The notes under the pieces are model-generated. The model had not been told where the DNA came from and made no database searches. It saw nothing but the letters and a program-made list of their open reading frames with translations. A stretch of DNA of 64,000 nucleotides from Emticicia sp. 21SJ11W-3. Its GTDB lineage: Bacteria; Bacteroidota; Bacteroidia; Cytophagales; Spirosomataceae. Shown here piece after piece: positions 48,029 through 64,000 of the stretch. A program made the translations under genes and the position numbers. The stretch is taken from contig NZ_CP092074.1 in the NCBI RefSeq assembly GCF_024138715.1, forward strand, positions 3,534,001 to 3,598,000, written 5' to 3'. Position 1 is the stretch's first letter, and each line of letters opens with the position of its first letter.

Positions 48029-48029
48029 A

Positions 48030-48767
48030 TTAGTTACCCTGCGGATAGGTTAAACGAAATGAACTTATAGAGAGCTGCACAAAAGCCACTTTTTCTATAG
48101 GTATGTAAGTGTTGTCATCCTGCCATAAAATAACCATGTTGTTCATCGGGTCTATCTGCTGTTTTAGCTTTTTGGCAAGCAGAGGTAATTCAAATTCAAA
48201 ACCTGATGGCAGTAAAAAATCATTATTTAGCCAGTAGGTGCGCCCGGGCAAAGGCAGTAATGGTGTACCTGCAATGAGCAGATTATCGTCGATGCCCACC
48301 CATTTTAGCTTGTTGAGCCTTACTTTTGGCGCAGTCTGTATATATTCCCCAGCGTTTTTTTTGTCTGCAAGCAGGGCAAAAACGGGCTGCTCTTTATCAG
48401 CAGCCACTATTCTGATAGCAATTTTTTGTCTTATACCAAAATAATTATGGTTAAACGATGGTAACGTTAAAGGTAAAGTATAAGCCAATGGCGACCACAG
48501 ATTGCCCTGAGGTAATTTCTTTACCGGCAAAAGGCTATCTTTTAAAAAAAGAAGCCCGTTTTTCAAATAATATACTTTACTATATGGCAGCCCTTTAATT
48601 AAAACGCTGTCAGCCTGCTCAGAGTTAATATCCTTTAGCCATAGAGTGTCTCCTTCAAAAGCTGCCCTTAGATTGTCCCAGTGCCTGATGGAGCCCAATG
48701 TTTCTTTATGGGCAGCAGGTATCTCCAGCAGGTAATCTTTTATAGCGTTTGCAGTATTTTCTGCCAT
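48030..48767 (-). CDS. ternary-system accessory protein, bpX-type
   Basis: A 245-residue beta-rich protein with no membrane helix or catalytic motif I recognise. It reads AIKDYLLEIPAAHKETLGSI at the start and has strands such as VYYLKNGLLFLKDSLLPV and a WLNNDFLLPSGFEFELPLL segment. Its start overlaps the MoxR end by 28 bases and its end is 1 base before the vWA gene. This position between MoxR and vWA is where short accessory bpX proteins of these systems are found. It may bind the target or bridge the ATPase and vWA; both are inference. Confidence 0.6.
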   Translation of the reverse strand: MAENTANAIKDYLLEIPAAHKETLGSIRHWDNLRAAFEGDTLWLKDINSEQADSVLIKGLPYSKVYYLKNGLLFLKDSLLPVKKLPQGNLWSPLAYTLPLTLPSFNHNYFGIRQKIAIRIVAADKEQPVFALLADKKNAGEYIQTAPKVRLNKLKWVGIDDNLLIAGTPLLPLPGRTYWLNNDFLLPSGFEFELPLLAKKLKQQIDPMNNMVILWQDDNTYIPIEKVAFVQLSISSFRLTYPQGN

Positions 48768-49870
48768 AAGGCTTCAATTTCTTGTTGTATATATTGTTTT
48801 TGTTCGTTGTTCTTAATCCAGTCGCAACGGGTCTGCAAGTAACGGAGTTTATCTTTTATAACATTTTTCTCTTCAAAAGAGAGTGAGCTATCCTCCCATC
48901 TTTCGGCAAGCTGTCGCACATCTTTAATTACCTCCTCAGGATTCGGAGCCTTATTAAATGCGGCCTGCGGATGTGCCGCTGCATTTGTGTCTTTTTCTAT
49001 AACCTTATTTATAATGCTTTCAAGCACTTCTATCTGTTCTTCGGTATCCCAAATGTATTTGAGTACCCATAAATCAGAAAGAGTTGCCTCTTTGCGGCCG
49101 CACATCAATGCACTTGCGGCAATAAGACTCTGAAGTTTCACAGCCCTTCTGTCAGATACTTTTATACCTGTGTTTCTAAGGGTGTGCACGAGGTCTGCAT
49201 ATTGCTGGCGGATGCCTTTCAGTTCTACATTCTTGCAGAATGCCTGTAATTGTATTATCTCTTCTGCATCTATGGTAGCAAGCTCGCTGGCAATAGAATT
49301 CTCTAGTTTCCACCCAGCTACGAGCACTTCATTCAACTGGTCGGGGTCAACATAATCACATTTAATACGAATAAGGAAACGATCAAGTAACGCATTGAGG
49401 GCTTCATCCTCAGGCAGTACGTTACTGGCCCCTACAAACATAAGTGCCGGTAGTTTTCTGGTTTCTTTGCCTCTTCTGAAAATCTTTTCGTTAAGTGCCA
49501 TCAGCAAGCTATTTAAAATGGCAGAGTTGGCATTGAAAATCTCATCAAGAAAAACCATTGATGCCTCAGGCAACATGCCTTCTGTATTGGTGACAAGTTC
49601 GCCTTCCTTTAGCTTTTTAATATCAAAAGGGCCAAATATCTCATTAGGCTCCGTAAAACGGGTAAGTAAATATTCAAAATTTTTGCCCTGTGCTATTCTT
49701 TCTGACAAGGCTCTTACAATGGCACTTTTTGCTGTTCCCGGAGGCCCCAGTAAAAAGGCATTTTCTCTGGCTACAAGGCCAATTCCTAATAAATCTATTA
49801 TTTCGTTCTTGCCTACAAAAATGCTTTTAAGCTCAGTTAATGCCTTGTTTAATTTTTCTACAGTAGCCAT
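48740..49870 (-). CDS. MoxR-family AAA+ ATPase of the ternary system
   Basis: A 376-residue AAA+ ATPase. Walker A is GPPGTAKS at residues 42-49, Walker B MVFLDEIF at 105-112, sensor 1 lies in MFVGASNVLPED, and the arginine-finger segment is LDRFLIRIKCDY. RAVKLQSLIAASALM is the typical C-terminal lid helix. MoxR enzymes are ring-forming chaperones that act with vWA proteins to remodel or activate partners. The gene is second in the operon, with 20 bases after the preceding gene and a 28-base overlap with the next. Confidence 0.92.
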   Translation of the reverse strand: MATVEKLNKALTELKSIFVGKNEIIDLLGIGLVARENAFLLGPPGTAKSAIVRALSERIAQGKNFEYLLTRFTEPNEIFGPFDIKKLKEGELVTNTEGMLPEASMVFLDEIFNANSAILNSLLMALNEKIFRRGKETRKLPALMFVGASNVLPEDEALNALLDRFLIRIKCDYVDPDQLNEVLVAGWKLENSIASELATIDAEEIIQLQAFCKNVELKGIRQQYADLVHTLRNTGIKVSDRRAVKLQSLIAASALMCGRKEATLSDLWVLKYIWDTEEQIEVLESIINKVIEKDTNAAAHPQAAFNKAPNPEEVIKDVRQLAERWEDSSLSFEEKNVIKDKLRYLQTRCDWIKNNEQKQYIQQEIEALWQKILQTL

Positions 49871-49890
49871 ATATACTTTAGATGATTGCC

Positions 49891-50538
49891 CTAGGGCGTT
49901 GATATTTGGTTAGTGAATTCGCGCCATAAACTACTTTGATAATTGCCCAAATTAGCAAGTAATGCGCTGTTCATGTCGGGTTGTTCTGCCCATTCTGCTG
50001 CCTTTCTTTCTGTAATTCTGTCTAGATAAAGCTGCTTAAGGCAATTATTTTCAATAATGGTTTCTATATTCGTGTCAAAAAATTCTTCGTAAATGTCTAT
50101 AGCTGAATAAGGAAATTGTTTAAGGTGTTGTTCTACTAAGGGTATCAGTGGGTCATTTACATCTATTTCTTCGAGCGCATTTTTCAACTTTGGCAAAAAG
50201 CGCAGGCATAAGTCAGCCGATAGCATAACGGATGCATCTATACTGCCTATGTACGGTGGAACAAGTAAGTGTAGCTCAGCCGGTTTTTTTTCACGATAAA
50301 CAAATAGCTGTGCTACTGCATATATCGTTTTAGCTGCCCATAGTGCCGCCGACGATGAAAAGGCAGGAGGCGTAAAAGGATAATCAACACTTTCCTTCTC
50401 GTATTCACTTTTCAAAAAAACTATAACCTCTTGCTTCTCTTCATTAGGAATATCCTTCAATTTTTCATAGAGGGTAATGTGCTCATTAGCACGCAAATGA
50501 TAGATTGTTTCAAGAAAAGGCTTGAGTGGGTAATTCAT
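49891..50538 (-). CDS. first gene of the ternary operon, helical protein
   Basis: A 215-residue, mostly helical protein starting MNYPLKPFLETIYHLRANEH. It contains LPKLKNALEEIDVNDPLIPL and FPYSAIDIYEEFFDTNIETI. I recognise no enzyme motif. It precedes MoxR by 20 bases on the same strand, so it is most likely one of the bpX-type companions of the system. A tight operon of five genes follows. The region upstream (50539-50827) holds the terminator of the next locus. Confidence 0.55.
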   Translation of the reverse strand: MNYPLKPFLETIYHLRANEHITLYEKLKDIPNEEKQEVIVFLKSEYEKESVDYPFTPPAFSSSAALWAAKTIYAVAQLFVYREKKPAELHLLVPPYIGSIDASVMLSADLCLRFLPKLKNALEEIDVNDPLIPLVEQHLKQFPYSAIDIYEEFFDTNIETIIENNCLKQLYLDRITERKAAEWAEQPDMNSALLANLGNYQSSLWREFTNQISTP

Positions 50539-50827: not shown

Positions 50828-53800
50828 TTACTGAGGGTATAAATAAATAGTGTTAACGATTTGTTTACTTAATCCCTTATCATTCGACCATCGAAGTCTG
50901 GCTGCGCCAGTATAACCGCCATCCCAGATTTCAAATTTTATTGAATACTTTTGTCCGGCTTGTAAATACACAGTTTTGGTAGCTGTAAACTCGGTTTCCG
51001 GATGCGAAGTATTATCATCTATTAATTGTTCAGAGTTTATCCATAACCTGACACCATCATCTCCGGCACCGTAGAAGGTATAATTTCCGCTTACTGGTGG
51101 TTCTATATACCCTTCCCATCTCACAGAAAAATCATTATTTACACCTGCCACGGGCGATAAGGCCCATTCGAAGTCAATCTTAGGGTCAATTTTGGTTACA
51201 GCCGGGGTTGTCTGGTTCATACCACTAAAAGATGTAGTATTAAAATACCTGGCTGTCAGGCCGGTTCCGTTAGGTGGTGGTGTCTGTCTAACTGAAACGG
51301 TTAGAGAAGCAGCCTCTCCTTTAATAGATACAATACCAAACTTTGTTACTCTGTTTGAAATTTCTGTTGCTGTATAGGCCGGAACGGTTACACTAATCTG
51401 TTTGTCTCCATAAGCATTATACGGATTTGTGTTTATCCAGTTTTCGTTAACCGTGGCCGACCAAAATTTGCTTGATGTTACATTAACAAGTTCTGTTCCG
51501 CCCGCAGAGCCGAAAACAAGCGAACTTTTATCAACTATTAAAGTATTTGAGTTAGTCGGGCAACCTATAGGCTGAAATTTAAACTCCCGGTAAGAGCCTG
51601 TAAATGTAATGGCTTTTGTAAATCCACCTTCATCTGTCCAGTCGATTCCATAATTCTGGTTATATTGTCTGAAGTTGAAACGCTCATTTTCTGAAGGTGT
51701 TATGGTCCATTTTTGTGAGATTTTGTCACTAAAAAAACCTGTGCTTACTATTTTGGCCGGATGCTCGCCAAAAGGTATAAATGCCTCCAGGATTTTCCCC
51801 TGGAAATCTGACATTGAAATAACTTTGTAATAATCACCAACCTTCTCTAATTTCCATACCTGGTCTTTGTTTCCGGTATAACCTTTAAATTGGGTTGTAT
51901 AATTTTCCATCATTTGTAGCACTTTATCGTTGGCCACACCTCTGATAACAAAGCATTTGTTATGTAGCAAATCTGATTCATTTGCCGTTGGTGTATACTT
52001 CGGATACAGGTATTGTTGAGGGATTATTTGTTTAGAAATACCAGCATTGCTAGACCATTTCAACTTGAATGCCCCAACTCCTCCCATATCCCATGCAAAA
52101 ATTCTGATAGGGTATTTATATCCGGCCTTCAATTCTAAAGTTTTAAGGCCTTGCACTTCAATATCAAAATTATTTATTTCAGAATCAACTATCTTTTCGT
52201 TATTGATAAATGCCCTCATTCCATCATCCATATTTGCATAAAAGGTGTAGATACCGTTATCTGGCACTTCCAGGTAGCCTTCCCAGATAATCATGAAATC
52301 GAGTAGCATACCAGGAACCGGATTGCCACCATAGTTTACATTTACTGTTGGCTCAACCCTAATTAAATCAGGTGATATGGTTTTGATGGCTAGTGAATCC
52401 TGACCAACTATACCAGAAATTCGGTTATAATATTGAGCCAGTAAACCAGTGCCATTTGACACACCGGCCTGTCTTACATCTATTTCTCTTACTATTCCAT
52501 CAATAGAGATTCTGATGGTTCCCTTTCTTTCCTCGCCGGCATTGGCAGTTACACTAAGCGTAAAAGTACCATTATTAACCCCCGAAACAATCGACCGGTT
52601 AAGCCAGGTGGAGTCGGTTGTTGATATCTGCCAGCTGGTATTTGATGTTACAGCAATACTTACTGACTGAGCCTTGTTTGAAAAAACCAGGTCATACTTG
52701 TCCAGCTCCAACTTTAAATCTTTAAGAACTTCACTCTGAACTTCTTTCCAGTTTGAAACATTGCCATTTTCGGTAACAGACCTTATCTGGTATTTATAGG
52801 CTTTCGTAAACTCTACTTTTTCATCTACAAAGCTATATGCAGTGGTATCGCCTGCTGAAACCACCGTTAGAAGTGACGGTTTTTCTTCAGGCGTTTTCAC
52901 TTCAGCTCTGTAAATTTCAAATTCTTTGGCAGCATTCGGTGTATAACCCCAGTTTAGCTGAACGCTTTTGATTGAGTGCATGGCAACAGCTGTAAAAGGG
53001 GTTGGCATTGGTCTTTTCAGGGTGTCGGGCAATGACACCACATACAATTGCATACAATTACACTCTACACTGTTATTAAGCGCGGTATCGGCAGGCATGG
53101 CAGGTGCCAGATTAGGAGTGTTAAAGCACGACCGGTTGTTGGTGCCATCGTAAGCAATAATACTATAGACATACGATTTACCAGCCAAAGCAGTTGGGTC
53201 TTCCCATTCTATCGTATTATCGGTGGCGGTAAAGTATTTAACCCTCTGAAAATTACAATCTGAATTTGTCAGTTCTTTTCTGACAATCTCATGGCGTATT
53301 ACCTTTCCTGCTATCTGTTTTTCAGGGCTCTGGTCAAAATAGATTTTCAATTTGCCATTACTGTTATACCCGTGCTTTTTTATGATGGGAGGCATAGGCC
53401 GACGGGTATCAGGCTTCTGATGCGTAATATAGGTGGGCAAAGATTCATTATAATTTGAATCATAGGCCATTACGGCATACTTAAACTGCGGAAACTCCAT
53501 ATTCAGCGATAGGGTATCAACCACATTCAACACCTTTCGTATACCTCTGCCCAGAAAAATCTTTTCAGTTTCGGCACCAACTTGCCTGTAAACCTGATAA
53601 CCCAGCAGGTCTGGGTCTGTATTGGCGTTCCAGGAAAGAGTAATCCGGTAATCGCCATCTGTTTTTAATGTATTAATGGCAAGGCCTGTGGGTGCGGCAG
53701 GTGGGGTTCTGTCTATACGGGTAACAATATACGCCAGCGAGAAAGTGGTGTCTCCACCAATGCCCAGCGCCCCTATTCTGAAATAAACAGAGCTTGTGGT

Positions 53801-55000
53801 ATCGCTTAGTTTATTAAATATGGTAGAAGCAGGTATGTTAAGGGTGGTTAAGGTTTTAGTGATAGCCGTAGTGCCTGAAACAACCGAATTGGCCGCAAAC
53901 AAAGTGTCAGTTTTTGATGCCTGAATTACATACCCGTTAATATTATTGAGATGCTCGGTAGTCTGGGTAGTGGCTATCGGAAATTGCCATGTAAATTTAT
54001 AGTTTGCACCTATTCTTTCAATATCTGTAAAACCCGGAATCTCTTTCAGTTCCCGATAAATTGTTGTGTCTTTGGTTGTACTGGCAACCTCGTCGCCAAA
54101 GTAAGAAATACCCGTTACTTTATACCGGTACATCTTGGTTGTGTTCAGTATTGAGTCTGAATAGTAGTTGGCATTCAGCTCAGTAAAGTTTATAAATGGC
54201 AAGGAGTTATTGGCCGAATCTACAGTTAAACGTTTAAAGGCTCCCCAGTTAGCGTCGCTTGTCAACTTTTCGGCTCTGTCAATGTAATAGCCTGCATATA
54301 TTTTCCGCTCGCTGTCATCCTCCTCATTGGTGGTTACGCCCCACTTCAGAATTACCCGCCCTTTCGAGTCTTTGTTTTTTACAGTTTTAAGACCTTTCGG
54401 CTGTGGCAAAACCGTGTTCTGTACCTGAATAGGTGGCGAAGTATATCTGGCCTGAACAACGCTTGAACTGTTGAGCAACTCTACCCTGTAAGTATAAAAA
54501 ACGCCTGTACTTACATTGGTATCAGTATATCCTAACCCGGCCAGCTTTGCTGCACCGTATCTTAAATCTGCTGCAAGCGAAGCCATAAAGTGCCTTTCTG
54601 AAAGCGCTCCGCTGATGAGGTTGTCCTTACTTGGGTTGGGGTTAGTACTGAACGGATAATATGCATTAAACAGAAGTTTATAGAACAGGTCATTCCAATT
54701 GGCCTGCCAGGCTGTGGTTGATGAGTCTGTTGATATCAGTTTCAGATTTGAGGTAGTAATTGTTTCCAGCGGGGTTCCCGTTGTATCACTGGTGCTATAT
54801 TTCCTCCTGATCAGCCTGAAACTCCCGCCTTGTGTGGCAATATTCCACTTGGCAGAGTCTTCGGGCATCCAACGCATTAAAATCTGATTCGACGGGCTGG
54901 TTTTGGTCAGATACTTAAAATCAAAGGCATTTTGGCCAAAGGCTGTATCTGCGAAGAACAATAAAAAGCAAAGGGTAAATATATGTTTGTAAACTTTCAT
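50828..55000 (-). CDS. giant secreted fibronectin-III/BACON/PA14 protein
   Basis: A protein of 1390 residues. ATG 55000 (MKVYKHIFTLCFLLFF) gives a signal peptide; an in-frame ATG at 55027 does not fit as well. Fibronectin-III units fill residues ~200-780. A BACON-like domain follows with SNTSWQISTTDSTWLN, then PA14 with WEGYLEVPDNGIYTFYANMD and DDGMRAFIN. A beta-trefoil-like stretch comes next (FVIRGVANDKVLQMMENY), then a second BACON, and a second PA14 (YTFYGAGDDGVRLWINSEQL) ends the chain. PA14 and BACON usually bind carbohydrate. It is the last gene of the toxin cluster, which suggests an adhesive or delivery role. No enzyme motif or T9SS sorting tail is evident. Confidence 0.8.
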   Translation of the reverse strand: MKVYKHIFTLCFLLFFADTAFGQNAFDFKYLTKTSPSNQILMRWMPEDSAKWNIATQGGSFRLIRRKYSTSDTTGTPLETITTSNLKLISTDSSTTAWQANWNDLFYKLLFNAYYPFSTNPNPSKDNLISGALSERHFMASLAADLRYGAAKLAGLGYTDTNVSTGVFYTYRVELLNSSSVVQARYTSPPIQVQNTVLPQPKGLKTVKNKDSKGRVILKWGVTTNEEDDSERKIYAGYYIDRAEKLTSDANWGAFKRLTVDSANNSLPFINFTELNANYYSDSILNTTKMYRYKVTGISYFGDEVASTTKDTTIYRELKEIPGFTDIERIGANYKFTWQFPIATTQTTEHLNNINGYVIQASKTDTLFAANSVVSGTTAITKTLTTLNIPASTIFNKLSDTTSSVYFRIGALGIGGDTTFSLAYIVTRIDRTPPAAPTGLAINTLKTDGDYRITLSWNANTDPDLLGYQVYRQVGAETEKIFLGRGIRKVLNVVDTLSLNMEFPQFKYAVMAYDSNYNESLPTYITHQKPDTRRPMPPIIKKHGYNSNGKLKIYFDQSPEKQIAGKVIRHEIVRKELTNSDCNFQRVKYFTATDNTIEWEDPTALAGKSYVYSIIAYDGTNNRSCFNTPNLAPAMPADTALNNSVECNCMQLYVVSLPDTLKRPMPTPFTAVAMHSIKSVQLNWGYTPNAAKEFEIYRAEVKTPEEKPSLLTVVSAGDTTAYSFVDEKVEFTKAYKYQIRSVTENGNVSNWKEVQSEVLKDLKLELDKYDLVFSNKAQSVSIAVTSNTSWQISTTDSTWLNRSIVSGVNNGTFTLSVTANAGEERKGTIRISIDGIVREIDVRQAGVSNGTGLLAQYYNRISGIVGQDSLAIKTISPDLIRVEPTVNVNYGGNPVPGMLLDFMIIWEGYLEVPDNGIYTFYANMDDGMRAFINNEKIVDSEINNFDIEVQGLKTLELKAGYKYPIRIFAWDMGGVGAFKLKWSSNAGISKQIIPQQYLYPKYTPTANESDLLHNKCFVIRGVANDKVLQMMENYTTQFKGYTGNKDQVWKLEKVGDYYKVISMSDFQGKILEAFIPFGEHPAKIVSTGFFSDKISQKWTITPSENERFNFRQYNQNYGIDWTDEGGFTKAITFTGSYREFKFQPIGCPTNSNTLIVDKSSLVFGSAGGTELVNVTSSKFWSATVNENWINTNPYNAYGDKQISVTVPAYTATEISNRVTKFGIVSIKGEAASLTVSVRQTPPPNGTGLTARYFNTTSFSGMNQTTPAVTKIDPKIDFEWALSPVAGVNNDFSVRWEGYIEPPVSGNYTFYGAGDDGVRLWINSEQLIDDNTSHPETEFTATKTVYLQAGQKYSIKFEIWDGGYTGAARLRWSNDKGLSKQIVNTIYLYPQ

Positions 55001-55026
55001 GTTTTTAAATCTTTGTGGCATAAGCA

Positions 55027-58000
55027 TTAAATACCGTAGCAGTCTTTACCCAGGGTAACGCCAAAGTTGAGTGTCTTCCGTTTGGTAAGTCTAAGGCCAA
55101 TCTGCCCGTTAAACTTCGATGGAGCAAAGCCCTGGGCCTCCAGCAAAACGCCCAGACCCGCACTAAATAACTGCACTTTTTTTCTAAAGATGTAAATACC
55201 TGCTCTGGCATTAACGATACCATACAACCTGCCGTTGGCTCTGAACTTGTTATTACAGGCAGGGTTACTGGCCAGTATCACATCAAGGCCTGCGGTGGCA
55301 TCACCAATTATGTACCCAATACCACCATCCAGGTTATATTGCATCTTTATTTTCGCACCAAATGCAAATCCGTTTCCGTTAGCAACTGTGCTTATATCGG
55401 AGTAATTCCGGCTGGTACTTGGCGCATCGCTGCCCGAATAGCCAAAAAATGCCTGTACGTCAGGGTCAACCGGTATGTAGCTTGGAACGCCTCTTCCTAT
55501 CATTAAATAAGCCGATGCCTCAGCAAAATTGCCAAGTCTGATACCAATGCGATTGTAGTATGAACCCAGATGGACATAAAAGCCTCCGTTAAGTTTTCCG
55601 CCAATATGAATTACCCCTCTTCCTGCCAACCCGTTGTTAATACCCACCAGTTGCATGCCCCCTGCCGAGGTATTGATATAAACCTCAGCCTCTGCGTGCA
55701 AAAATTTCTTTTCAAAATCAAGCATAAAACCCAGTGCAACCGCTATATCGCCTTTCGACTCTATGTCTGCCTGTGTCTGTCTGGTTCTGGCTTTGGTAGA
55801 GACACTATTCTGTGTATGAGGAGGAACCTTGTTAGTGGCCTCTTCAGTTGATAAACCTGTTGATGAATTGCCGGTGGCCATTTTAACATAGTCAGTCTTT
55901 AAATCCGGCGCTCTGTACTCACTGGTAAAGACACCATTACCCCACAAGGCAATGTTGTTTATACCACCATTATTGTTCATTGAAAAATCAATGCTGACCC
56001 TACCCAGAAACGTAGGCTTTAATGAAGTTCCTGCCTTATTCTGAATGCCTACCATGGCTTTAAAGCCAAATGCAATATTTTTGTCTTTGATGTATTCAAT
56101 ATCCGTACCGTTCAGCACAGGTTTCATGTTAAAATACACACCCAAACCTACACCGTTGATACCGAGGTCAAGAAATCCGGTTGGAATAGACCCGGAAGAA
56201 GTGGTGCCTGGTGTTATTATGGGGTCTCCGGAAGTATTATAAGTAACAACTGAAGGGGCGCTAGAGGCATAAAAACTGGCGTAACCGTATCTGTAATTAT
56301 TCGCCTTGTCGTATCCGAACTTTACCTGCGCATCTACACCAAATGGAAATGGCTTTTTCATAGCCACTATCAGGGTTCCATCAAAGCCTTTATCGGTAGC
56401 GTTGTCAAAAATGTTTACATAGCCCAGAAAATCCATAGCCGTGGTTGAGCCATTGATTCTGATACTTTTCAGTTGAAACCCTTTAAATTTGAGTTTCCCG
56501 GTAGAAGGAATGTACTCCGACTTAAGTGTAAAGGTACTGGTACCGGAGAATCTGTTTTGTGCCAGTGATATTTTCAACCCCATACCAATGTTAATGATAT
56601 TCGAATTGGCATTGGCTTCTTTGCTTAATTTTGTAACCACTACAGGAAAGTTAGCAATTCGGGAATTATCGCTACTTACATACTCAATGCCCTCAAGGCC
56701 TACCTCCATATTCCCGGTAGTTACATTCCTTTTGGCACTCAGCCCAGTAAACTGTATACCTTTAAAATTAATGGTCTCGCTGTCGGTGTAGGTTGGGCTG
56801 TCAGATTCTGACGCCGTGTATTTGCCTCCAATCTTCACCTCACCACTCAGGTATGCCGATGGGTAGAACTGCCCGTTTTGTACCAGCAGCTCAACCTTAG
56901 ACCCTGCATATATTTTTCCTTTAGCAGGCCAGCATTTAAAGTTAATTTCTGTGTTTGTTACTGTATTGACAGAGAACAGAAAACTACCATCCTGATTGAC
57001 ACTGGCATCATACTGAAACAAGTCCGAATCGCCATCGCCCGTCATAGGGGTGCTTATACCCCCGCCAAAGCCTCCGTTGGTGAGTCTGTTCTGTACAAAA
57101 CCCAGATTCAAAGAGTTGAGGGTTAACCGCCATTTAGAGGCGTCGCAGTCTGCCAGATTTCCTGTGGCACTTATCTGCCCCGTAAAACCTGAGCGGTCTA
57201 TAATGGTATTACTTACATTCAAGCTAAAAGGCGTAACATTACCCCCGCTACTGCGACTTTTGAATTCTTTGGATAATAACACACTCAGGCTACCGATATA
57301 CAAGCCCCTCCACTTTTCATCTTTATCACCCGAGTAGGCAGCCGGAAATGCTGTGCCGGGCATACCCATCTGTTTATCGCTTAAGTCAATAATAGCATTC
57401 TGTAACTTAAAGCCGAATTTTTCAAAACCGGCCACAGCAAAGGCTTTGTTTGTGTTGATAGGTATAACCAGGTCTCTTAAACCTGTTGGCCCGACCCAGA
57501 TTCCGGAGCTACTATTATAGGTTTGAAGCGTTACTCTTTCATTACCTGCTATTACCTCACGTGTGGTTTCATTGAAAGGGACAATCACATTTCTTGGGAA
57601 CACCACATCGGCGGCTATGCTCAGACCTGCAAACTTACCGCAATCGTATTGTATAAAGGTCTTGCTTAAATCGGTACTGGCAGCACTGGCTGCCCCTTTC
57701 AGGGTCATGGTCCAGCTTTTCATCGGTATCGGAAAATCTCCCAGTAATACCAGTTTGATAGGTGAGCCTGATGTGCCTTTCATACCGCCACTCCGGCTGA
57801 TTCTGACACCCGATACCCCAAAGAACAAATCTCTCTCTTTTTGCTCTACATCGGGGTTATCAAGCATAAACTTGTACCTCACAAATATGGTGGCCTCGGC
57901 GTGGTCGCTGAAAAAGTTGACCTCGCTGATGCCCAGCATTATTTCTGAGTTGTCTGAGATAACCTCTTTAATACCCACAGGTACCTTAAACAGATCATCA

Positions 58001-58362
58001 TAATTGATGTCTGCCAGCACCTTGTCTGGGTTGTTGTCAAGATGATTGAAAACCTTGGCTGCGGCGCTTCTGTCGTTTGTGGCAGAGGGGGGTACAAAGA
58101 GCTTCAGGTCCTCCATCTTGTCTACATAGCCCTGCGCACTCAGCTGGGTTTGTAGCTTGGCAAATGCCTTGTGCAGCTCTGCATTTACTGCCGCTTTAGG
58201 TACCGCAGCTTCATCCACTGCCACAGCAGCGGGTAGTGGTTTATCTGACTCCTTTTTCTTAGTACCCGGCCCGTCATCGCTGGCATGAGCCGCCAACGTA
58301 AAGCCGCATACTAATAACAGCAAAGCCCAGATTTTACATATAGGTTTGTAGAATTGCTTCAT
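55027..58362 (-). CDS. giant secreted protein of unknown function
   Basis: An 1111-residue protein with a signal peptide ending AAHASDD. A low-complexity Ala/Pro/Lys linker follows, then long beta-rich sequence. Features include FLDLGINGVGLGVYFNMKPVL, a 130-residue segment rich in Ser/Gly, and a C-terminal set of alternating strands (GLDVILASNPACNNKFRANG, VQLFSAGLGVLLEAQGFAPS, QIGLRLTKRKTLNFGVTLG), which may be a barrel. I recognise no described domain. It lies between the immunity-like gene and the PA14 protein, so it may be the outer-membrane or surface partner of the toxin. That is inference from context. Confidence 0.65.
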   Translation of the reverse strand: MKQFYKPICKIWALLLLVCGFTLAAHASDDGPGTKKKESDKPLPAAVAVDEAAVPKAAVNAELHKAFAKLQTQLSAQGYVDKMEDLKLFVPPSATNDRSAAAKVFNHLDNNPDKVLADINYDDLFKVPVGIKEVISDNSEIMLGISEVNFFSDHAEATIFVRYKFMLDNPDVEQKERDLFFGVSGVRISRSGGMKGTSGSPIKLVLLGDFPIPMKSWTMTLKGAASAASTDLSKTFIQYDCGKFAGLSIAADVVFPRNVIVPFNETTREVIAGNERVTLQTYNSSSGIWVGPTGLRDLVIPINTNKAFAVAGFEKFGFKLQNAIIDLSDKQMGMPGTAFPAAYSGDKDEKWRGLYIGSLSVLLSKEFKSRSSGGNVTPFSLNVSNTIIDRSGFTGQISATGNLADCDASKWRLTLNSLNLGFVQNRLTNGGFGGGISTPMTGDGDSDLFQYDASVNQDGSFLFSVNTVTNTEINFKCWPAKGKIYAGSKVELLVQNGQFYPSAYLSGEVKIGGKYTASESDSPTYTDSETINFKGIQFTGLSAKRNVTTGNMEVGLEGIEYVSSDNSRIANFPVVVTKLSKEANANSNIINIGMGLKISLAQNRFSGTSTFTLKSEYIPSTGKLKFKGFQLKSIRINGSTTAMDFLGYVNIFDNATDKGFDGTLIVAMKKPFPFGVDAQVKFGYDKANNYRYGYASFYASSAPSVVTYNTSGDPIITPGTTSSGSIPTGFLDLGINGVGLGVYFNMKPVLNGTDIEYIKDKNIAFGFKAMVGIQNKAGTSLKPTFLGRVSIDFSMNNNGGINNIALWGNGVFTSEYRAPDLKTDYVKMATGNSSTGLSTEEATNKVPPHTQNSVSTKARTRQTQADIESKGDIAVALGFMLDFEKKFLHAEAEVYINTSAGGMQLVGINNGLAGRGVIHIGGKLNGGFYVHLGSYYNRIGIRLGNFAEASAYLMIGRGVPSYIPVDPDVQAFFGYSGSDAPSTSRNYSDISTVANGNGFAFGAKIKMQYNLDGGIGYIIGDATAGLDVILASNPACNNKFRANGRLYGIVNARAGIYIFRKKVQLFSAGLGVLLEAQGFAPSKFNGQIGLRLTKRKTLNFGVTLGKDCYGI

Positions 58363-58605
58363 TTTATAGGTTTTTCTCTTTAAATATCACAGTGAGGATG
58401 GTGTTTGGTAATTTTATGCTCTTTTTACTTTTGGTTAAAAACATATTTCTAAATACTGTATTTCAAACTTTCTTGCGTTTTTCGAGACTATTTGAATAAT
58501 CTTTATCGCTGTTAACATCTCCTTCTAATTGCTTCATCTTTTCCTCATTTAATTAAGAAGTTAAATACTCTTTGTCAATTTCTTTCAAGTCGCAACAGTA
58601 AGAAA

Positions 58606-59124
58606 TTATATTTTTGCTCTTCTCTGCTTACTTAGTGGCAACATTAGATAGAATATATCAAACCCTCTATCGTCATAAATGTCTAATACTGTTATAAACT
58701 CTTCTTGATTTATACATACTTGAATCCTTAAGTTAAGTGCTGGCTCTTTAGCCATTTCATAATTAAAATGATTCTCCAATAATAATTTTAAAAAGAATTC
58801 ATCTATATCTGTATCTTCTACGAAAATAACACCAGGAATTTTACCATAATTGTATGAAATACTAATATTGAAGTTATTATTGCTAGAATTATTGAAGAAC
58901 TCTTTCAAAACCTCATCATTTTCCCAGTAAAGAATTTTATAGGTTACAGTTTTAATACATTTAATAGATAAGATGAATTTAATGATGAAGCCAGCCTTCT
59001 TTTTTAATTCAATATTTTCTATATCAAACCTACCTGTTATTATATTTTTACCCTTCTTACTTTTCAATAATTTAAGAAGCAGTATATCAAAATTTTCAGA
59101 ATTGATAAAATTTTTACTCATCAT
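58606..59124 (-). CDS. probable immunity protein
   Basis: A 172-residue cytoplasmic-type protein without signal peptide, clearly more AT-rich than its neighbours and rich in Asn, Lys and Ile. It has helical and strand segments (FDILLLKLLKSKKGK, GVIFVEDTDIDEFFLKLLL) and no known catalytic motif. It follows the toxin stop by 2 bases, the usual place of an immunity gene after a polymorphic toxin. Composition unlike its neighbours fits the exchange of toxin-immunity cassettes. Function is inferred from position. Confidence 0.6.
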   Translation of the reverse strand: MMSKNFINSENFDILLLKLLKSKKGKNIITGRFDIENIELKKKAGFIIKFILSIKCIKTVTYKILYWENDEVLKEFFNNSSNNNFNISISYNYGKIPGVIFVEDTDIDEFFLKLLLENHFNYEMAKEPALNLRIQVCINQEEFITVLDIYDDRGFDIFYLMLPLSKQRRAKI

Positions 59125-59126
59125 TC

Positions 59127-62100
59127 TTATCTTTTAAAAATATTAAGGTTTTCGTCTGCTGTTCCTATCCTTTTTAACTTACCACCCACTTCTTCGAATA
59201 CTTTCCAAGCACCACCATTATGAGAATCTACATCCTTTGAATAATACTTCCCTTTATATTCATAAACTTTTTGACCATGCTGATAGCCAAATTTCTTTGT
59301 TTGTGTAAATCCTTTAGGAATAACACTCTTTGCATTCTTAGCGAGTTCAACTCCAACTTCACTAACATTATCGCAATTTTTACCCTTCGGGGGATTAGCA
59401 TTTACACGCAAATTACTACCAATTGCGCATATCCCCCAAAGGTCATAAGTTCCTTTTCCTTTAGTACCATCGGCAAATTCCACCTCACCCTCTATAGTAC
59501 CCAGATACTGGTTATGTGCAGAAGTTTTCTTTTTAACTTTTTTATAAACTCCGTTTACATACTCCATCGCCTCGCCAGCAATACCACCCGTTGCATTACG
59601 AATTATAAACTTACCTGTTTTACCAGCTCCTTTCTTAAAAGCAACGCCGGCCTTACTCATTATTTTTGAGGTAACGTCAAGTTTGTTAGATATTTCAGAT
59701 ACCTTTTGTACCACTTCGGCGAGCTTAGCCGCTTTCATGGCTTTCAGACCAACTGTTATTGTTCCGGCTCCAATAAACATAGACGCTATCTCAAAAGCTG
59801 TGCGCCCGTTGTAATATCTGTTCATTGGCGCCATACCCACATTGTTTTCTATAAACTTCCCAACTTGCGTTACAACGCCACCCCATACTTTTTCAAATGC
59901 ATCTTTATTAAAAAGACCCACCAGGCCTTGAACAGCCTCCCAGGAATCTGTAACCATTTTTTTGCAATCATCCCTAAAAAAAGCGGTGGCGTTCAGGCAG
60001 CTAACAACCTTTGCTAATTGCCATACAGAAGTACCTGTTTCCTTAAGTGCAATATAACCCCCATCAAGAAGTCCACTATAAAAGGCGAGTGTACCGTCGT
60101 TTTCATATAAAGATTTAGGAATAAATCCGCCATCTACAGGACTTGAGCTAAGTGCCTGACTTATCTTTGTAAAGTATTTCCCTAAATATTTATCGTAAAT
60201 GGACGTTACCAAATCACGTCCCCACGGAAAGTCAAAGGAGGTGCTAGCCACACGTGTATTAGATGAACTGTATGCACTTAAACTGCTCAACAATTCGTCC
60301 AATTCCGCAAGTGCTGGTGCTTTTTCAGCATCAGTAAGTGCATAATCGTCCTGAATGGAGTCTCTGAGTTTTTGTCCGGATTCAAGAAGCATTGCCGCAG
60401 CTTCTTTACTTTCTATTGAACTTGACGAAGCTCCGTAAGTCTGTGCGGCTTTTTCAAAATCTTCATAGAAATCACCCAACAACTCAATAAACTTACTAGG
60501 CTCAATGAAATTACCCCACGTTGGGTCATACTGTACTGATACTTTGTTGGTAATGCCTGATTTCAGCTGGTAACACTGGTCTATCTGTATACCAGTAAAC
60601 TCAACGGCTACATCGGTCTGTGCGTCTCCTTTTATGGTTAGAGTGGTATAGCCTTTACCTGTCCAACCGTTTACTTCGTTACCGGTTACTTCGGTTACTT
60701 TTACTTCGTAGTCTCCGGCATTGAAATAATCCCCTACCGACAATGCTTTTAGTTTGTTATTATCTATTGTGCCTACGGCTCCTGTATCACCGCAGTTTTT
60801 AAAGGAGTCATCCAGCAGTGTACAAGGCTGAGAAGAAATATCCAGCACCACTTCGCATCCGGCGGCAATGGTTGCCTTGTAAGTACCCATCACCGGGGCT
60901 TCCACTGTCAAGGCATCCGCGCCTTGTTGCGGAGAGCCATTAGGCCCTGTCCAAACCGGTTTCAGGTATAGTGGTCTAACGCCGTCGTAGGTTTCAAGGG
61001 TTATTACCAGTTTATCAAACTGGTCGCGGGTGTTAGGTTTACGCGGCATCCGGCTGGTGTATTCACCGGTTATAGGGTTCTGGGCGCGTAGTACAAAATC
61101 ATCACACAAAGACACCATCAAATCGGTAGTGCCAGTGGTTTCGCAAAAGGCATCAGGGTTTGCGCCGCTTACCTTTGCTTTTACGGTATATACTCCGCTG
61201 TAAGTAACCTCGGGGTTAGTAATGGTTACGGTTCTTCCACCAGCGCCAAAGGTAATTTTGTTGGCAATGGCTACCACCTCGGTGCCGTCGGGGTAATACC
61301 ATTTATAGGTAGCCCCTTCAATAGCCGTGGCCGTCAGCGTTACACTGCCGTTGGTAGTTACAGGGCCGTTATTAGATGCCTTGAAACTCTCTGAAAACGG
61401 CGACTCTATGGATATTTCTTTGGGGTCGCTGTAATAACTATTGTCGGGCTTGTTACACCTTACGGCTACTGTCTGCGGCAAATACACCGTTATACTCTGG
61501 CTGAAGTTGTTCCAGCCTCTTTCGGCAGTGTACCATTGGTAATACCAGGCCTGGCCGTTAGATTCAACCGGGCAGCCGGTGGCAGTTAACGTTACAGGGT
61601 TGTTTGGGCAAACCCTGGCAGCGCCTGTTACAATGGCGCCTATGTCTCCGGCAGGCGCAAGGTATATCATAGACCAGTCTGGCGCTACGCCGGGGTCGTT
61701 TACACAACGGGCAGAATAGTAGCCCGGCCCTGATACTGTTAGTGGGTTAACGTTACCAGCGGTGCCGCTGCTACCCCATTTCCATTGCAGCTGGCCGTAG
61801 TCACAGCCGTAGGCGGTAAGTGTGGCGGTTTCAGATACAGCTACCTGCTTTTTATTAGATACTATTCTTAGGGCGTCACCGGGTGCCAGTAATACTTCGG
61901 CAGTGCGCAATGGCCCTATGCCCCCGCCGGGCAGCGTACAGGCTGCTTCAATTTTTACAGGACCCTGTACAGAAAAAGCTTTTTCGAATTTAACGGTATG
62001 AGACCCATCAGCAAAAATAACCTTGGCATAATAAGTTGCCGGATTACAACCACTCAGGCTTACATTGACCAGGTCTGATGGGCGCGCCAACAGTTTGTCG

Positions 62101-64000
62101 GTGGCAATATTGGCGGCATCGGGCTGGCAAGCCGTAACATTAATAGATGTTTCAGGGCCGCTTACTCCAAAGCGGTTACAGAATACCTTGTAAGTGCCGG
62201 GCCCAACAGAGCTGAGTGTACGGCCTATTTCGGTGGCGCCTGATGGCAATACCCAGTTGACGGTTCCGTCTGAACAGCCATTGGTTGTGAGCAGAAATGC
62301 CTCATTAGTAAACACGCAAGACTTGCTGGTAATCATGTTTACTGCACCAGGCGGAGCAGTTTCAATGTTTATTTCGCTCCAGGGGCCTGCACTTCTGTCT
62401 GTTACCACGCATCGTGCTCTGTAACGGCCCGGCCCTGTAAATGTAACCGGTGAACCTGACACAAAGCCCGCTTTGGTTTCCCACTGAACCGAGCCCATAG
62501 TACAGCCCGTTGCGGTGGCAATAAACTGCTCGAACGGACCCACCTTTATAACAGGGTTGCCAGGTGCGTCTTTATTGGTGGTTATCTGCACACCCGGTAC
62601 CTTAAGCATGTATAAGATTACCTCTGCCCATGGCCCCACCTGATTACCCACAACGCAGCGGGCGCGGTAAGTTCCGGCGCCGATTACATTTGTAGTGTTT
62701 CCTGTTCTTATATCGCCGAAGATATCCCATTGCACACCGGCCAGACTGCTTGTACAGCCCGAGGCAGTAAGGGTTATGTTTTCGTTATCATAAACATTAT
62801 ATTTTGATGCCGAAATAGCGATGGCATCCACTGTATTCGGATGGATGGTAATATAGACCCACTCGCTAGTCTGGTTACCCATTACGCAGCGCGCCTGATA
62901 GGTACCGGGTCCTGTTACGGTCTGGTTTCTGCCGGAAACATAGGTTTCACCAAATTTCCACTGGATACCTGCTCTGGAATCATTACAGCCAAGTGCATTA
63001 AGACTCACCGATTCTACCTCAAATGCTTTTACCTTGTCTGAAGTAAGCTGAATGTTATCGAGATTTTTGGCATTAATGATGGTTCTTTCCCAAGGGCCTG
63101 TAACAGGCCCCGAATAAAGGCATGCAGCCAGATAAGCACCCGAGCCAGTAACATTGACAGTCGATACATTATTAATTATTGTTCCATTGATATTCCATGA
63201 ATAATTGCCGGGGCAACCTGAAGCTGTAAGTGTAACAACGTCAATATCGTAAGCATCAGTTTGATTTGCTGTTATTTTCGGCTTATCATACTGTTTGAGT
63301 GTTATAGTAATTGTAGTAAATTGAAATTCTGTCTCCAGAGCATTAGCCGCAATGTGGGTAGGAACACAACGCGCCGCATAAGTACCCGGCCCACTTACAG
63401 ATAACGGGTTCTTGTTTTCAGAATCCGTAATATAGGCACCATCTTTTTTCCATTGTATTTTTGAATTTTGTGCAGGGCAGCCCATTGCCTTAATTGCAAA
63501 TGTCTGGCCTGCCACAGCCTCATAACCTGGCAAATCAGGTTTCAGGGTTAAACCTGCCGTTACTTTTATTTCGTTAGATTTTGGACTTTCGCCGCAATTT
63601 GAATTAAAGCAGCTGGCGAAGTAAACACCAATATCAGCGATTTTAACTGGCGTTCCAGTTATAGGCAGCAATGAATACCCGTTTTCTTCAACTCTATACC
63701 ATTTTATAGTTTCGTTTACACCTTTACAGCCATCAGTACTTAAAGTAGCAACCTCTGGCAGGCTTATATTCGTCGGGTTACCTGTAATCGTTGGCGCCGA
63801 TGGAGTTTGGCTGTTAATGATAATTTGATTTGATGTGGCCGTTGTAACTACACCAACAATTGTGACGGAGCAGGTAGCATAATAAACACCCTGCTCTTTT
63901 ACTGAAAGCGTTAAAGACGCTTTGGGCTCGCTAAAGTCTTTTCCTTGGCTATGCCATCTAACAGTATTTGCCTGACATACTTTAGGCTCAGCCACCAGAT
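59127..64000 (-). CDS. giant Ig-repeat polymorphic toxin, 5' end outside window
   Basis: The frame is open to the window edge; a GTG at 63995 could act as start but the gene most likely continues. From the N-terminal side, about twelve repeats of 80-90 residues each carry two Cys (for example TLTASGCTSSLAGVQWDIFG then GAGTYRARCVVG). A linker domain follows with AGDYEVKVTEVTG and VQYDPTWGNFIEPSKFIEL, then a helical region with two amphipathic segments. The last ~70 residues are the candidate toxin, with VYEYKGKYYSKDVDSHNGGAW (split by domain) and LKRIGTADENLN. The DxxSHNGGxW / IGTxD pattern resembles the Ntox21 toxin domain and the colicin-E3-type RNase site; His is near residue 1592. Confidence 0.8.
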   Translation of the reverse strand, partial: LVAEPKVCQANTVRWHSQGKDFSEPKASLTLSVKEQGVYYATCSVTIVGVVTTATSNQIIINSQTPSAPTITGNPTNISLPEVATLSTDGCKGVNETIKWYRVEENGYSLLPITGTPVKIADIGVYFASCFNSNCGESPKSNEIKVTAGLTLKPDLPGYEAVAGQTFAIKAMGCPAQNSKIQWKKDGAYITDSENKNPLSVSGPGTYAARCVPTHIAANALETEFQFTTITITLKQYDKPKITANQTDAYDIDVVTLTASGCPGNYSWNINGTIINNVSTVNVTGSGAYLAACLYSGPVTGPWERTIINAKNLDNIQLTSDKVKAFEVESVSLNALGCNDSRAGIQWKFGETYVSGRNQTVTGPGTYQARCVMGNQTSEWVYITIHPNTVDAIAISASKYNVYDNENITLTASGCTSSLAGVQWDIFGDIRTGNTTNVIGAGTYRARCVVGNQVGPWAEVILYMLKVPGVQITTNKDAPGNPVIKVGPFEQFIATATGCTMGSVQWETKAGFVSGSPVTFTGPGRYRARCVVTDRSAGPWSEINIETAPPGAVNMITSKSCVFTNEAFLLTTNGCSDGTVNWVLPSGATEIGRTLSSVGPGTYKVFCNRFGVSGPETSINVTACQPDAANIATDKLLARPSDLVNVSLSGCNPATYYAKVIFADGSHTVKFEKAFSVQGPVKIEAACTLPGGGIGPLRTAEVLLAPGDALRIVSNKKQVAVSETATLTAYGCDYGQLQWKWGSSGTAGNVNPLTVSGPGYYSARCVNDPGVAPDWSMIYLAPAGDIGAIVTGAARVCPNNPVTLTATGCPVESNGQAWYYQWYTAERGWNNFSQSITVYLPQTVAVRCNKPDNSYYSDPKEISIESPFSESFKASNNGPVTTNGSVTLTATAIEGATYKWYYPDGTEVVAIANKITFGAGGRTVTITNPEVTYSGVYTVKAKVSGANPDAFCETTGTTDLMVSLCDDFVLRAQNPITGEYTSRMPRKPNTRDQFDKLVITLETYDGVRPLYLKPVWTGPNGSPQQGADALTVEAPVMGTYKATIAAGCEVVLDISSQPCTLLDDSFKNCGDTGAVGTIDNNKLKALSVGDYFNAGDYEVKVTEVTGNEVNGWTGKGYTTLTIKGDAQTDVAVEFTGIQIDQCYQLKSGITNKVSVQYDPTWGNFIEPSKFIELLGDFYEDFEKAAQTYGASSSSIESKEAAAMLLESGQKLRDSIQDDYALTDAEKAPALAELDELLSSLSAYSSSNTRVASTSFDFPWGRDLVTSIYDKYLGKYFTKISQALSSSPVDGGFIPKSLYENDGTLAFYSGLLDGGYIALKETGTSVWQLAKVVSCLNATAFFRDDCKKMVTDSWEAVQGLVGLFNKDAFEKVWGGVVTQVGKFIENNVGMAPMNRYYNGRTAFEIASMFIGAGTITVGLKAMKAAKLAEVVQKVSEISNKLDVTSKIMSKAGVAFKKGAGKTGKFIIRNATGGIAGEAMEYVNGVYKKVKKKTSAHNQYLGTIEGEVEFADGTKGKGTYDLWGICAIGSNLRVNANPPKGKNCDNVSEVGVELAKNAKSVIPKGFTQTKKFGYQHGQKVYEYKGKYYSKDVDSHNGGAWKVFEEVGGKLKRIGTADENLNIFKR

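What the first reader, a model, noticed from the sequence alone, without database searches (positions are those of the whole stretch)
59127..64000. Giant Ig-repeat polymorphic toxin with candidate RNase tip
The chain starts with disulfide-type Ig repeats and ends in a short C-terminal module with DxxSHNGG and IGTxD motifs, like Ntox21 or a colicin-E3-type 16S rRNA nuclease. A tail of this kind after a long surface stalk is the plan of contact-dependent toxins, but the stalk here is a Bacteroidota Ig array and not RHS, CdiA or a known secretion tag. A small AT-rich gene follows by 2 bases.
Basis: partly seen in the sequence, partly recalled or inferred. Interest (0 to 1): 0.72.

Follow-up and report, generated by a model that had tools for sequence, protein, structure and literature searches.

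The report
Ig-stalk toxin with swappable tips
A bacterium carries a very long surface-type protein that ends in a ribosome-cutting toxin domain, with a likely antidote gene beside it and different spare tips stored elsewhere in its genome, pointing to a little-known weapon system of Bacteroidota.

Summary
The gene is cut by the window edge: it encodes 2415 aa. Its last ~60 residues pass Pfam's Ntox21 cut-off and match the solved E. cloacae CdiA toxin (4ntq, E=1.7e-5) with all four catalytic positions kept, so a 16S-rRNA nuclease tip is likely. Swapped tails exist: four orphan units about 400 kb away in the same genome, with different tails of no known family, and relatives with AHH, WHH, EndoU or Endonuclease_NS tails. 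Each orphan unit keeps homology on both sides of the variable part: pretoxin DNA before it, and the first 112 nt of the next gene (B) after it. A conserved domain ("MID") before the tail is shared with sub-threshold TANFOR toxins. MID is fused to B in 17 of 29 distant loci, and lies within 1.7-5.7 kb of B in 13 of 13 strong-B genomes of the family. This looks like a sister class to TANFOR toxins. Export route, B's role and immunity function are inferred.

The parts
59127..64000 (-). 3' part of the 2415-aa polymorphic toxin gene (residues 793-2415); the gene continues outside the window to equivalent position 66374
61095..63998 (-). Ig-like stalk as far as it lies in the window (residues 793-1760)
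   Evidence: Cys-Trp-Cys repeat pattern, 12 units in the whole protein, shuffle maximum 3 in 500; Ig_3 below cut-off
60255..61094 (-). MID region (residues 1761-2040): Ig-like first part, then a conserved core with GDxFxAxDY...GWxGKGY...CYEL...YDPxW signature
   Evidence: alignment A3; matches in 33 of 395 genomes of the phylum sample and 45 of 222 genomes of the family, some weak ones covering only the Ig-like part
59340..60254 (-). pretoxin region (residues 2041-2345), conserved among some relatives and the orphan cassettes
59338..59828 (-). 5' homology arm shared with orphan cassettes (longest extent residues 2183-2346; 74-90% nt identity depending on the unit)
59127..59339 (-). variable toxin tail, Ntox21 / CdiA-CT(ECL)-like; Pfam stretch residues 2355-2411 = 59142-59312; catalytic positions D2381, D2383, H2385, K2391
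58606..59124 (-). putative cognate immunity gene, 172 aa, AT-rich, 2 bases after the toxin stop; weak DUF3885 (17.1 bits, cut-off 23)
   Evidence: position, composition; function inferred
58250..58412 (-). 3' homology arm: last 50 nt before gene B and its first 112 nt, repeated at 90-94% identity in the orphan array
55027..58362 (-). gene B, 1111 aa, predicted all-beta, conserved partner gene; no Pfam or NCBIfam family above cut-off
50828..55027 (-). gene C, 1399 aa: conserved first part (about residues 1-770) plus BACON/PA14 part

Best explanation
The gene encodes a Bacteroidota polymorphic toxin: an exported, surface-length chain (signal-like start, conserved N-terminal region, about 12 Ig-like units, MID domain, pretoxin region) that carries at its C-terminus an Ntox21 / colicin-E3-type 16S rRNA nuclease meant for other bacteria. 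The 172-aa gene 2 bases downstream is its immunity gene. Genes B and C belong to the same system; B is the likely physical partner of MID. The tip and its immunity gene form a cassette that can be exchanged by homologous recombination, because an array about 400 kb away stores four other tail + small-gene units (one of them frame-broken) between the same two homology arms: pretoxin DNA upstream, the start of gene B downstream. Shown by sequence: architecture, tail family and catalytic residues, swapped tails, cassette arms, conserved B and C, and MID-B fusion elsewhere. Inferred: rRNA cleavage, export to the surface, delivery, immunity, toxicity of the array tails, and that the cassettes are really used for switching.
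For: Ntox21 above cut-off. PDB 4ntq CdiA E=1.7e-5, with D203/D205/H207/K214 (active site named in PMC9086364, passages read) aligned to D2381/D2383/H2385/K2391. Four own-genome orphan units with different tails, 38-79% aa identical in the pretoxin. Unit 3 nt identity is 0.87-0.95 over residues 2253-2332, 0.20-0.50 over most of the tail, immunity gene and spacer, then 0.82-0.92 from -57 to +112 of gene B. Of 31 tails scanned, 8 hit a nuclease family above cut-off: Ntox21 (this one), EndoU, Endonuclea_NS_2, AHH (1 each), WHH with Colicin-DNase (3), Col-Pyo_DNase (1, a TANFOR-type locus). Of 24 downstream genes, some hit SUKH, Imm30 and Imm11 immunity families at E<=0.01. MID lies within 1.7-5.7 kb of B in 13 of 13 strong-B genomes; strict co-occurrence 13/12/0/197, Fisher p=1.5e-14 (the genomes are related, so p is too small). 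SprA of the T9SS is present in this genome.
Against: No experiment, and no structure model of the tail or of a toxin-immunity complex. None of the four orphan tails of the own genome hits a Pfam family at E<=0.01 (0 of 4), and 23 of 31 tails have no above-cut-off nuclease match. The immunity protein has no convincing relative: in 150 family genomes only itself plus two weak hits at 1.0e-4 and 2.5e-4; the one inspected (L124) lies in an ORF that looks like an outer-membrane receptor by eye. In a phylum sample of 385 genomes Ntox21 occurs in only one other, on an RHS protein, so no second Ig-stalk protein with this tip was seen. The toxin has no T9SS sorting domain. Eight of 25 strong-MID genomes gave no B match. 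The array could be debris: unit 1 is frame-broken and transposase-like remains flank it.
Confidence: 0.84

Rival explanations
1. Delivery by the T9SS: the toxin is a T9SS-dependent passenger, as proposed for TANFOR toxins, exported with help from a neighbouring protein that carries the sorting domain; B is an accessory surface protein.
For: SprA is in the own genome. Sorting-domain proteins lie near B/C in Runella limosa and Niastella soli (L060 and L065, above cut-off), and sorting-domain-like C-termini end genes next to TANFOR/MID toxins in L116-L118 (seen by eye). Jana et al. 2020 found the sorting domain enriched near TANFOR genes (PMC7073777, parts 1-3 of 6 read).
Against: Neither the toxin nor B nor C of this window has a sorting-domain match.
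Confidence: 0.4
2. Two-partner delivery: B is an outer-membrane beta-barrel that exports or anchors the toxin through MID, functionally like CdiB with CdiA; the MID-B fusions of other Bacteroidota are the one-piece version.
For: MID-B in one ORF in 17 of 29 distant loci. Tight MID/B linkage. B is predicted all-beta with long strands; the structural matches of its C-terminal half are mostly membrane beta-barrels. Alternating amphipathy in residues 571-1111 (z 6.3; 3.5 and 4.5 in two homologues; 2.0 for a TonB-receptor barrel control).
Against: Low-confidence model (pLDDT 72.7, pTM 0.43); Foldseek query TM-scores 0.06-0.17 in the 50 rows shown; VIA rmsd mostly 13-19 A, with apolipoprotein B in the top row. 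The amphipathy score is also raised in MID itself (z 3.7), so it does not single out barrels. No C-terminal aromatic in B, which ends near a conserved Cys. Eight of 25 strong-MID genomes lack a detected B.
Confidence: 0.22
3. The orphan array is debris of past tail replacements or duplications and not a working reservoir.
For: Units lack the stalk, unit 1 is frame-broken, and transposase-like remains are at the end. The array tails match no known toxin family.
Against: In the four units the 5' flank is kept at 74-90% and the 3' flank at 90-94% while the part between differs. Units 2-4 have intact tail ORFs and downstream genes. A second array with the same logic on its 5' side exists in Runella limosa (L050).
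Confidence: 0.3
4. The protein is mainly an adhesin and the Ntox21 tail is vestigial or acts inside the producer as a toxin-antitoxin pair.
For: No activity data; Ig repeats are common in adhesins (recalled).
Against: Catalytic positions are kept. Relatives carry other nuclease tails at the same place. The tail is C-terminal to a stalk with a signal-like start.
Confidence: 0.08

Closest known systems
TANFOR polymorphic toxins of Bacteroidetes (Jana, Salomon and Bosis 2020, PMC7073777)
   Same: Large Bacteroidota proteins with Sec-type start, beta-rich stalk, polymorphic C-terminal nucleases and downstream immunity genes. MID occurs in the same ORF as a (sub-cut-off) TANFOR match in 7 of 12 TANFOR loci fetched.
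   Different: No TANFOR domain here. Ig-like stalk in place of TANFOR-Fn3, separate gene B, orphan-cassette array. MID and B are not mentioned in the parts of the paper I read (parts 1-3 of 6).
CDI toxin CdiA-CT of Enterobacter cloacae (PDB 4ntq) / Ntox21 (PF15526) / colicin E3 nuclease
   Same: C-terminal nuclease domain with the same four catalytic positions.
   Different: The carrier is an Ig stalk with MID and gave no CdiA-type match; the immunity protein matches no solved structure convincingly (best E 0.18).
MafB/MafI of Neisseria and orphan cdiA-CT / rhs modules (PMC4287609, passages read)
   Same: Silent C-terminal cassettes, each with an immunity gene, some sharing a short 5' homology with the full toxin gene.
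   Different: Here the array is about 400 kb away rather than downstream of the active gene, and each unit also carries the start of the next gene as a 3' arm.
RHS polymorphic toxins
   Same: The same Ntox21 tip is found on a protein with RHS-type repeats (by eye) in another genome of the phylum sample.
   Different: No RHS match in this protein.

Membership tests
Ntox21 (PF15526) / CdiA-CT ECL-type rRNase domain | Profile match above Pfam cut-off | tested here: met
   34.1 bits against 25; 35.7 bits on the last 230 aa
Ntox21 (PF15526) / CdiA-CT ECL-type rRNase domain | Active-site Asp, Asp, His, Lys of 4ntq | tested here: met
   D2381, D2383, H2385, K2391 aligned to D203, D205, H207, K214
Ntox21 (PF15526) / CdiA-CT ECL-type rRNase domain | Motifs [DS]xDxxxH, K, RxG[ST], RxxD listed in PMC3482391 | tested here: inconclusive
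   SKDVDSH, WK and RIGT present; RxxD not evident, and not evident in the aligned part of 4ntq either
Ntox21 (PF15526) / CdiA-CT ECL-type rRNase domain | Cleavage of 16S rRNA | not testable with these tools
   needs a bench assay
Polymorphic toxin system | Conserved N-terminal part with variable C-terminal toxin domains | tested here: met
   8 of 31 tails are recognised nucleases, the rest have no above-cut-off nuclease match
Polymorphic toxin system | Immunity gene directly downstream | tested here: inconclusive
   172-aa gene after 2 bases, function untested; some relatives have SUKH, Imm30 or Imm11 genes there
TANFOR class (TIGR02542) | N-terminal TANFOR domain | tested here: not met
   no match at E<=0.1 in the full protein; none in own genome. 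So not filed as a TANFOR member
CDI two-partner (CdiA/CdiB) | TPS domain, filamentous haemagglutinin repeats, CdiB | tested here: not met
   no such Pfam or NCBIfam match in the toxin nor in B
RHS toxin | RHS/YD repeats | tested here: not met
   no match
T9SS substrate | C-terminal sorting domain | tested here: not met
   no match in toxin, B or C; non-canonical T9SS dependence is not testable here
Outer-membrane beta-barrel (gene B) | Closed barrel fold | tested here: inconclusive
   all-beta and amphipathic, many hits are barrels but with low TM and high rmsd

The most novel reading that the evidence does not exclude
MID and B form a delivery platform of their own: B sits in the outer membrane, MID docks on it, the Ig stalk faces outward and the toxin tip waits on the inner side. 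Some Bacteroidota keep MID and B as one protein; this group split it and placed an exchangeable toxin+immunity cassette between MID and B, flanked by homology arms that let a distant silent array replace the warhead.
Probability: 0.18. Interest if true: 0.85.

Novelty: new variant of a known kind. Interest (0 to 1): 0.64.

Why it matters
The one published class close to this (TANFOR) has no established export route (PMC7073777, parts read). Here a sister class is outlined by a shared domain (MID), a conserved partner gene (B) that is fused to MID elsewhere, and a distant array whose units carry both homology arms. That gives direct, testable handles on how such Bacteroidota toxins leave the cell and how their warheads are exchanged.

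Tried and rejected
TANFOR membership was considered and rejected: no TANFOR match in the protein or genome; the link is through MID only, and the TANFOR matches in other genomes are all below the curated cut-off (0 of 390 genomes over it). Two of the 7 shared-ORF MID matches are weak (L104 at 1.4e-5, L109 at 3.7e-10), and the fetched loci reach only about 1.5 kb past the TANFOR match, so the other 5 are untested further on. The N-terminal region is conserved in Runella limosa (residues 150-269) and Larkinella sp. C7 (146-391), but by eye it is unlike the TANFOR regions printed.

Gene B structure: a 6-row alignment gave pLDDT 62, 26 rows gave 72.7 with pTM 0.43. Foldseek and VIA lists hold mostly membrane barrels, with apolipoprotein B rows among them, at low TM and high rmsd. 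I do not claim the fold. The amphipathy test is my own crude score with one barrel control; it also gave z 3.7 for MID and 2.0 for the Ig stalk.

Immunity protein: no PDB relative (best E 0.18), weak DUF3885, no family-wide relatives.

Co-occurrence p-values ignore phylogeny. Its strict sets (B below 1e-50, MID below 1e-25) and the contig positions were copied by hand. With all matches the table is 22 both, 23 MID only, 14 B only, 163 neither; several of the weak MID matches cover only the Ig-like first third of the model. Of the 12 strict-MID genomes outside strict B, four (G114, G121, G149, G171) have a weaker B match within about 5 kb on the same contig, and eight (G099, G120, G123, G145, G156, G157, G187, G201) have none (read).

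Named loci: one peptide pattern, 28 stretches matched, 11 confirmed as B relatives. Of these 11, 10 hold a MID protein (8 upstream of B, 2 downstream in Niastella) and 8 hold C; L069 holds neither, its upstream stretch ending about 2 kb away at the contig end.

Tails: the 31 come from 19 loci and include four from TANFOR-type loci (L116-L118), truncated orphan cassettes, and three ORFs taken by position in an array without a MID or pretoxin match of their own (L050:14738-15397, L052:10889-11452, L052:14697-15614). One search gives no per-member table, so I scanned the other 30 one by one: my first count of eight nuclease families fell to six kinds in eight tails, because WHH and Colicin-DNase hit the same three and Col-Pyo_DNase and LHH the same one. 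PT-HINT, Hint_2, DUF3289, Uma2, SseC and DUF7786 matches are below cut-off. The 24 downstream genes were my choice of adjacent ORFs.

No paper describing MID, B or Ig-stalk toxins was recognised in the listings of the searches made; only openly licensed papers are held.

Full report
What is there. The ORF at 59127-64000 (-) is the 3' part of a 7.25-kb gene. The window lies at C1:3534001-3598000 of a 5.18-Mb single-contig genome, and the stretch beyond the edge shows a 2415-aa ORF starting MKNFYIRFLLLTVLIPLLVAG, which looks like a Sec signal (by eye; no predictor run). Along the chain: an N-terminal region conserved in Runella limosa and Larkinella sp. C7 (within residues 146-391); about 12 Ig-like Cys-Trp-Cys units, where 500 shuffles of the stalk never exceed 3; a region I call MID (1761-2040); a pretoxin region (2041-2345); and a short tail. 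The 172-aa ORF follows after 2 bases.

The tail. Pfam gives Ntox21 at 34.1 bits (cut-off 25). In the PDB only one sequence matches at E<=1, 4ntq, the Enterobacter cloacae CdiA toxin, E=1.7e-5. The review PMC9086364 (passages read) gives its active site as D203, D205, H207 and K214, with cleavage of 16S rRNA between A1493 and G1494 as for colicin E3. Counting along the alignment, these fall on D2381, D2383, H2385 and K2391. So the domain call is tested; rRNA cleavage is inferred. Zhang et al. 2012 (PMC3482391, passages read) list Ntox21 as a predicted BECR-fold domain; they call it a tRNase, while the later review above says rRNase.

Swapped tails in the same genome. A search of the genome with the gene found four further places, all at C1:4.003-4.009 Mb, about 400 kb from the gene, and all matching only its 3' part. 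They are four orphan units (L007): a pretoxin fragment 38-79% identical in protein, a different tail, and one or more small genes (one Imm30-like below cut-off, one DUF7878 at 105 bits). None of the four tails hits a Pfam family at E<=0.01, so that they are toxins is inferred from their place. Unit 1 is frame-broken; I left it so. Between the units lies a repeat that also occurs once at the main locus, at window 58250-58412. Translated, it is the start of the next gene, B. All four copies of this arm stop matching at the same base, 112 nt into B. In unit 3 nucleotide identity is 0.87-0.95 over residues 2253-2332, falls to 0.20-0.50 over tail, immunity gene and spacer, and returns to 0.82-0.92 from 57 nt before B to 112 nt inside it. 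Units 4 and 2 show the same shape with lower 5' identity (74-80% over the whole 5' match). The variable part is thus framed by homology on both sides, as expected for exchange by homologous recombination. Exchange itself has not been observed.

Swapped tails in relatives. The pretoxin occurs in 6 of 222 genomes of the family, own genome included; wherever the tail is visible it differs. Of 31 tails scanned, 8 hit a nuclease family above cut-off: Ntox21 here; EndoU, Endonuclea_NS_2 and WHH in the R. limosa array (L050); WHH in L051 and L053; AHH in Runella zeae (L059); Col-Pyo_DNase in a TANFOR-type locus (L118). The other 23 have no above-cut-off nuclease match. Of 24 neighbouring downstream genes, SUKH families were hit by up to 3 members, Imm30 by 2 and Imm11 by 1, at E<=0.01.

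MID, B and C. MID is found in 33 of 395 genomes of the phylum sample and 45 of 222 of the family, at E<=1e-5. B (1111 aa, no family above cut-off) is found in 36 of 222 family genomes. All 13 genomes with a strong B match (below 1e-50) have a strong MID match on the same contig 1.7-5.7 kb away; 12 strong-MID genomes have no strong B, and 8 of those have none at all. In 11 named loci with B (Runella limosa, R. zeae, two Larkinella, two Niastella, two Lacihabitans, an uncultured Croceitalea, 'Cellulophaga sp. BC115SP' and a metagenome bin), 10 hold a MID protein and 8 hold C. In 17 of the 29 distant loci L072-L100, MID is followed by B in the same ORF; in the two such genes read further (L113, L119; the MID match of L119 is weak, 9.5e-6), C follows. 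Such fusions are the usual hint that two separate proteins work together. It follows that the toxin cassette here sits where MID and B part.

Relation to TANFOR toxins. Jana et al. 2020 (PMC7073777; parts 1-3 of 6 read) described TANFOR-containing polymorphic toxins and suggested, without proof, that the T9SS exports them. This protein has no TANFOR, but of 12 loci with a sub-cut-off TANFOR match, 7 have MID in the same ORF. I therefore place it beside that class and not in it.

How it may work. Sec export is inferred from the start. The own genome has SprA of the T9SS, and sorting-domain proteins lie near B/C in two relatives, but toxin, B and C of the window show none. B is predicted all-beta; its C-terminal half resembles membrane barrels in Foldseek and VIA lists, but the model is weak (pTM 0.43) and the rmsd high. 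The alternating hydrophobic pattern of residues 571-1111 is strong (z 6.3; 3.5 and 4.5 in two homologues), though MID also scores 3.7 and the one barrel control only 2.0. I hold T9SS-linked export at 0.4 and a B-based two-partner route at about 0.2.

Novelty. Polymorphic toxins, Ntox21 tips and silent cassettes are all known (MafB: PMC4287609, passages read). New here, as far as the listings show, are the MID domain as common link, B as its conserved and sometimes fused partner, and a distant array whose units carry both homology arms. I rate it a new variant of a known kind.

Noticed in passing
window 43924-50538 (-): A bpX4-bpMoxR-bpX2-bpX0/bpX1-bpX3 MoxR-vWA-beta-propeller ternary conflict system lies directly downstream of gene C on the same strand.
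   Followed up: partly
L050 4131-15397 (R. limosa contig): A second orphan-cassette array: four toxins truncated inside MID, with EndoU and Endonuclea_NS_2 tails among them, each followed by a small gene; a WHH tail lies further on.
   Followed up: partly
L121: A protein with RHS-type repeats (by eye) in another genome of the phylum sample ends in a strong Ntox21 domain (E=5.3e-21), so the same tip travels on another carrier.
   Followed up: partly
L063 18020-21794 (Larkinella punicea): A VIT-domain protein and an exosortase-like protein sit beside B and C.
   Followed up: no
window 50828-55027: Gene C carries a BACON/PA14 part; in R. limosa a PA14 region is found in a separate nearby protein with a T9SS sorting domain (L060:16789-20862).
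   Followed up: partly
L007 13008-13740: Transposase-like remains end the orphan array (judged by eye).
   Followed up: no
L081, L082, L085: Distant MID proteins carry an AHELGHGIFGLKHPF metallopeptidase-like stretch after MID, possibly a peptidase tip (seen by eye, not searched).
   Followed up: no
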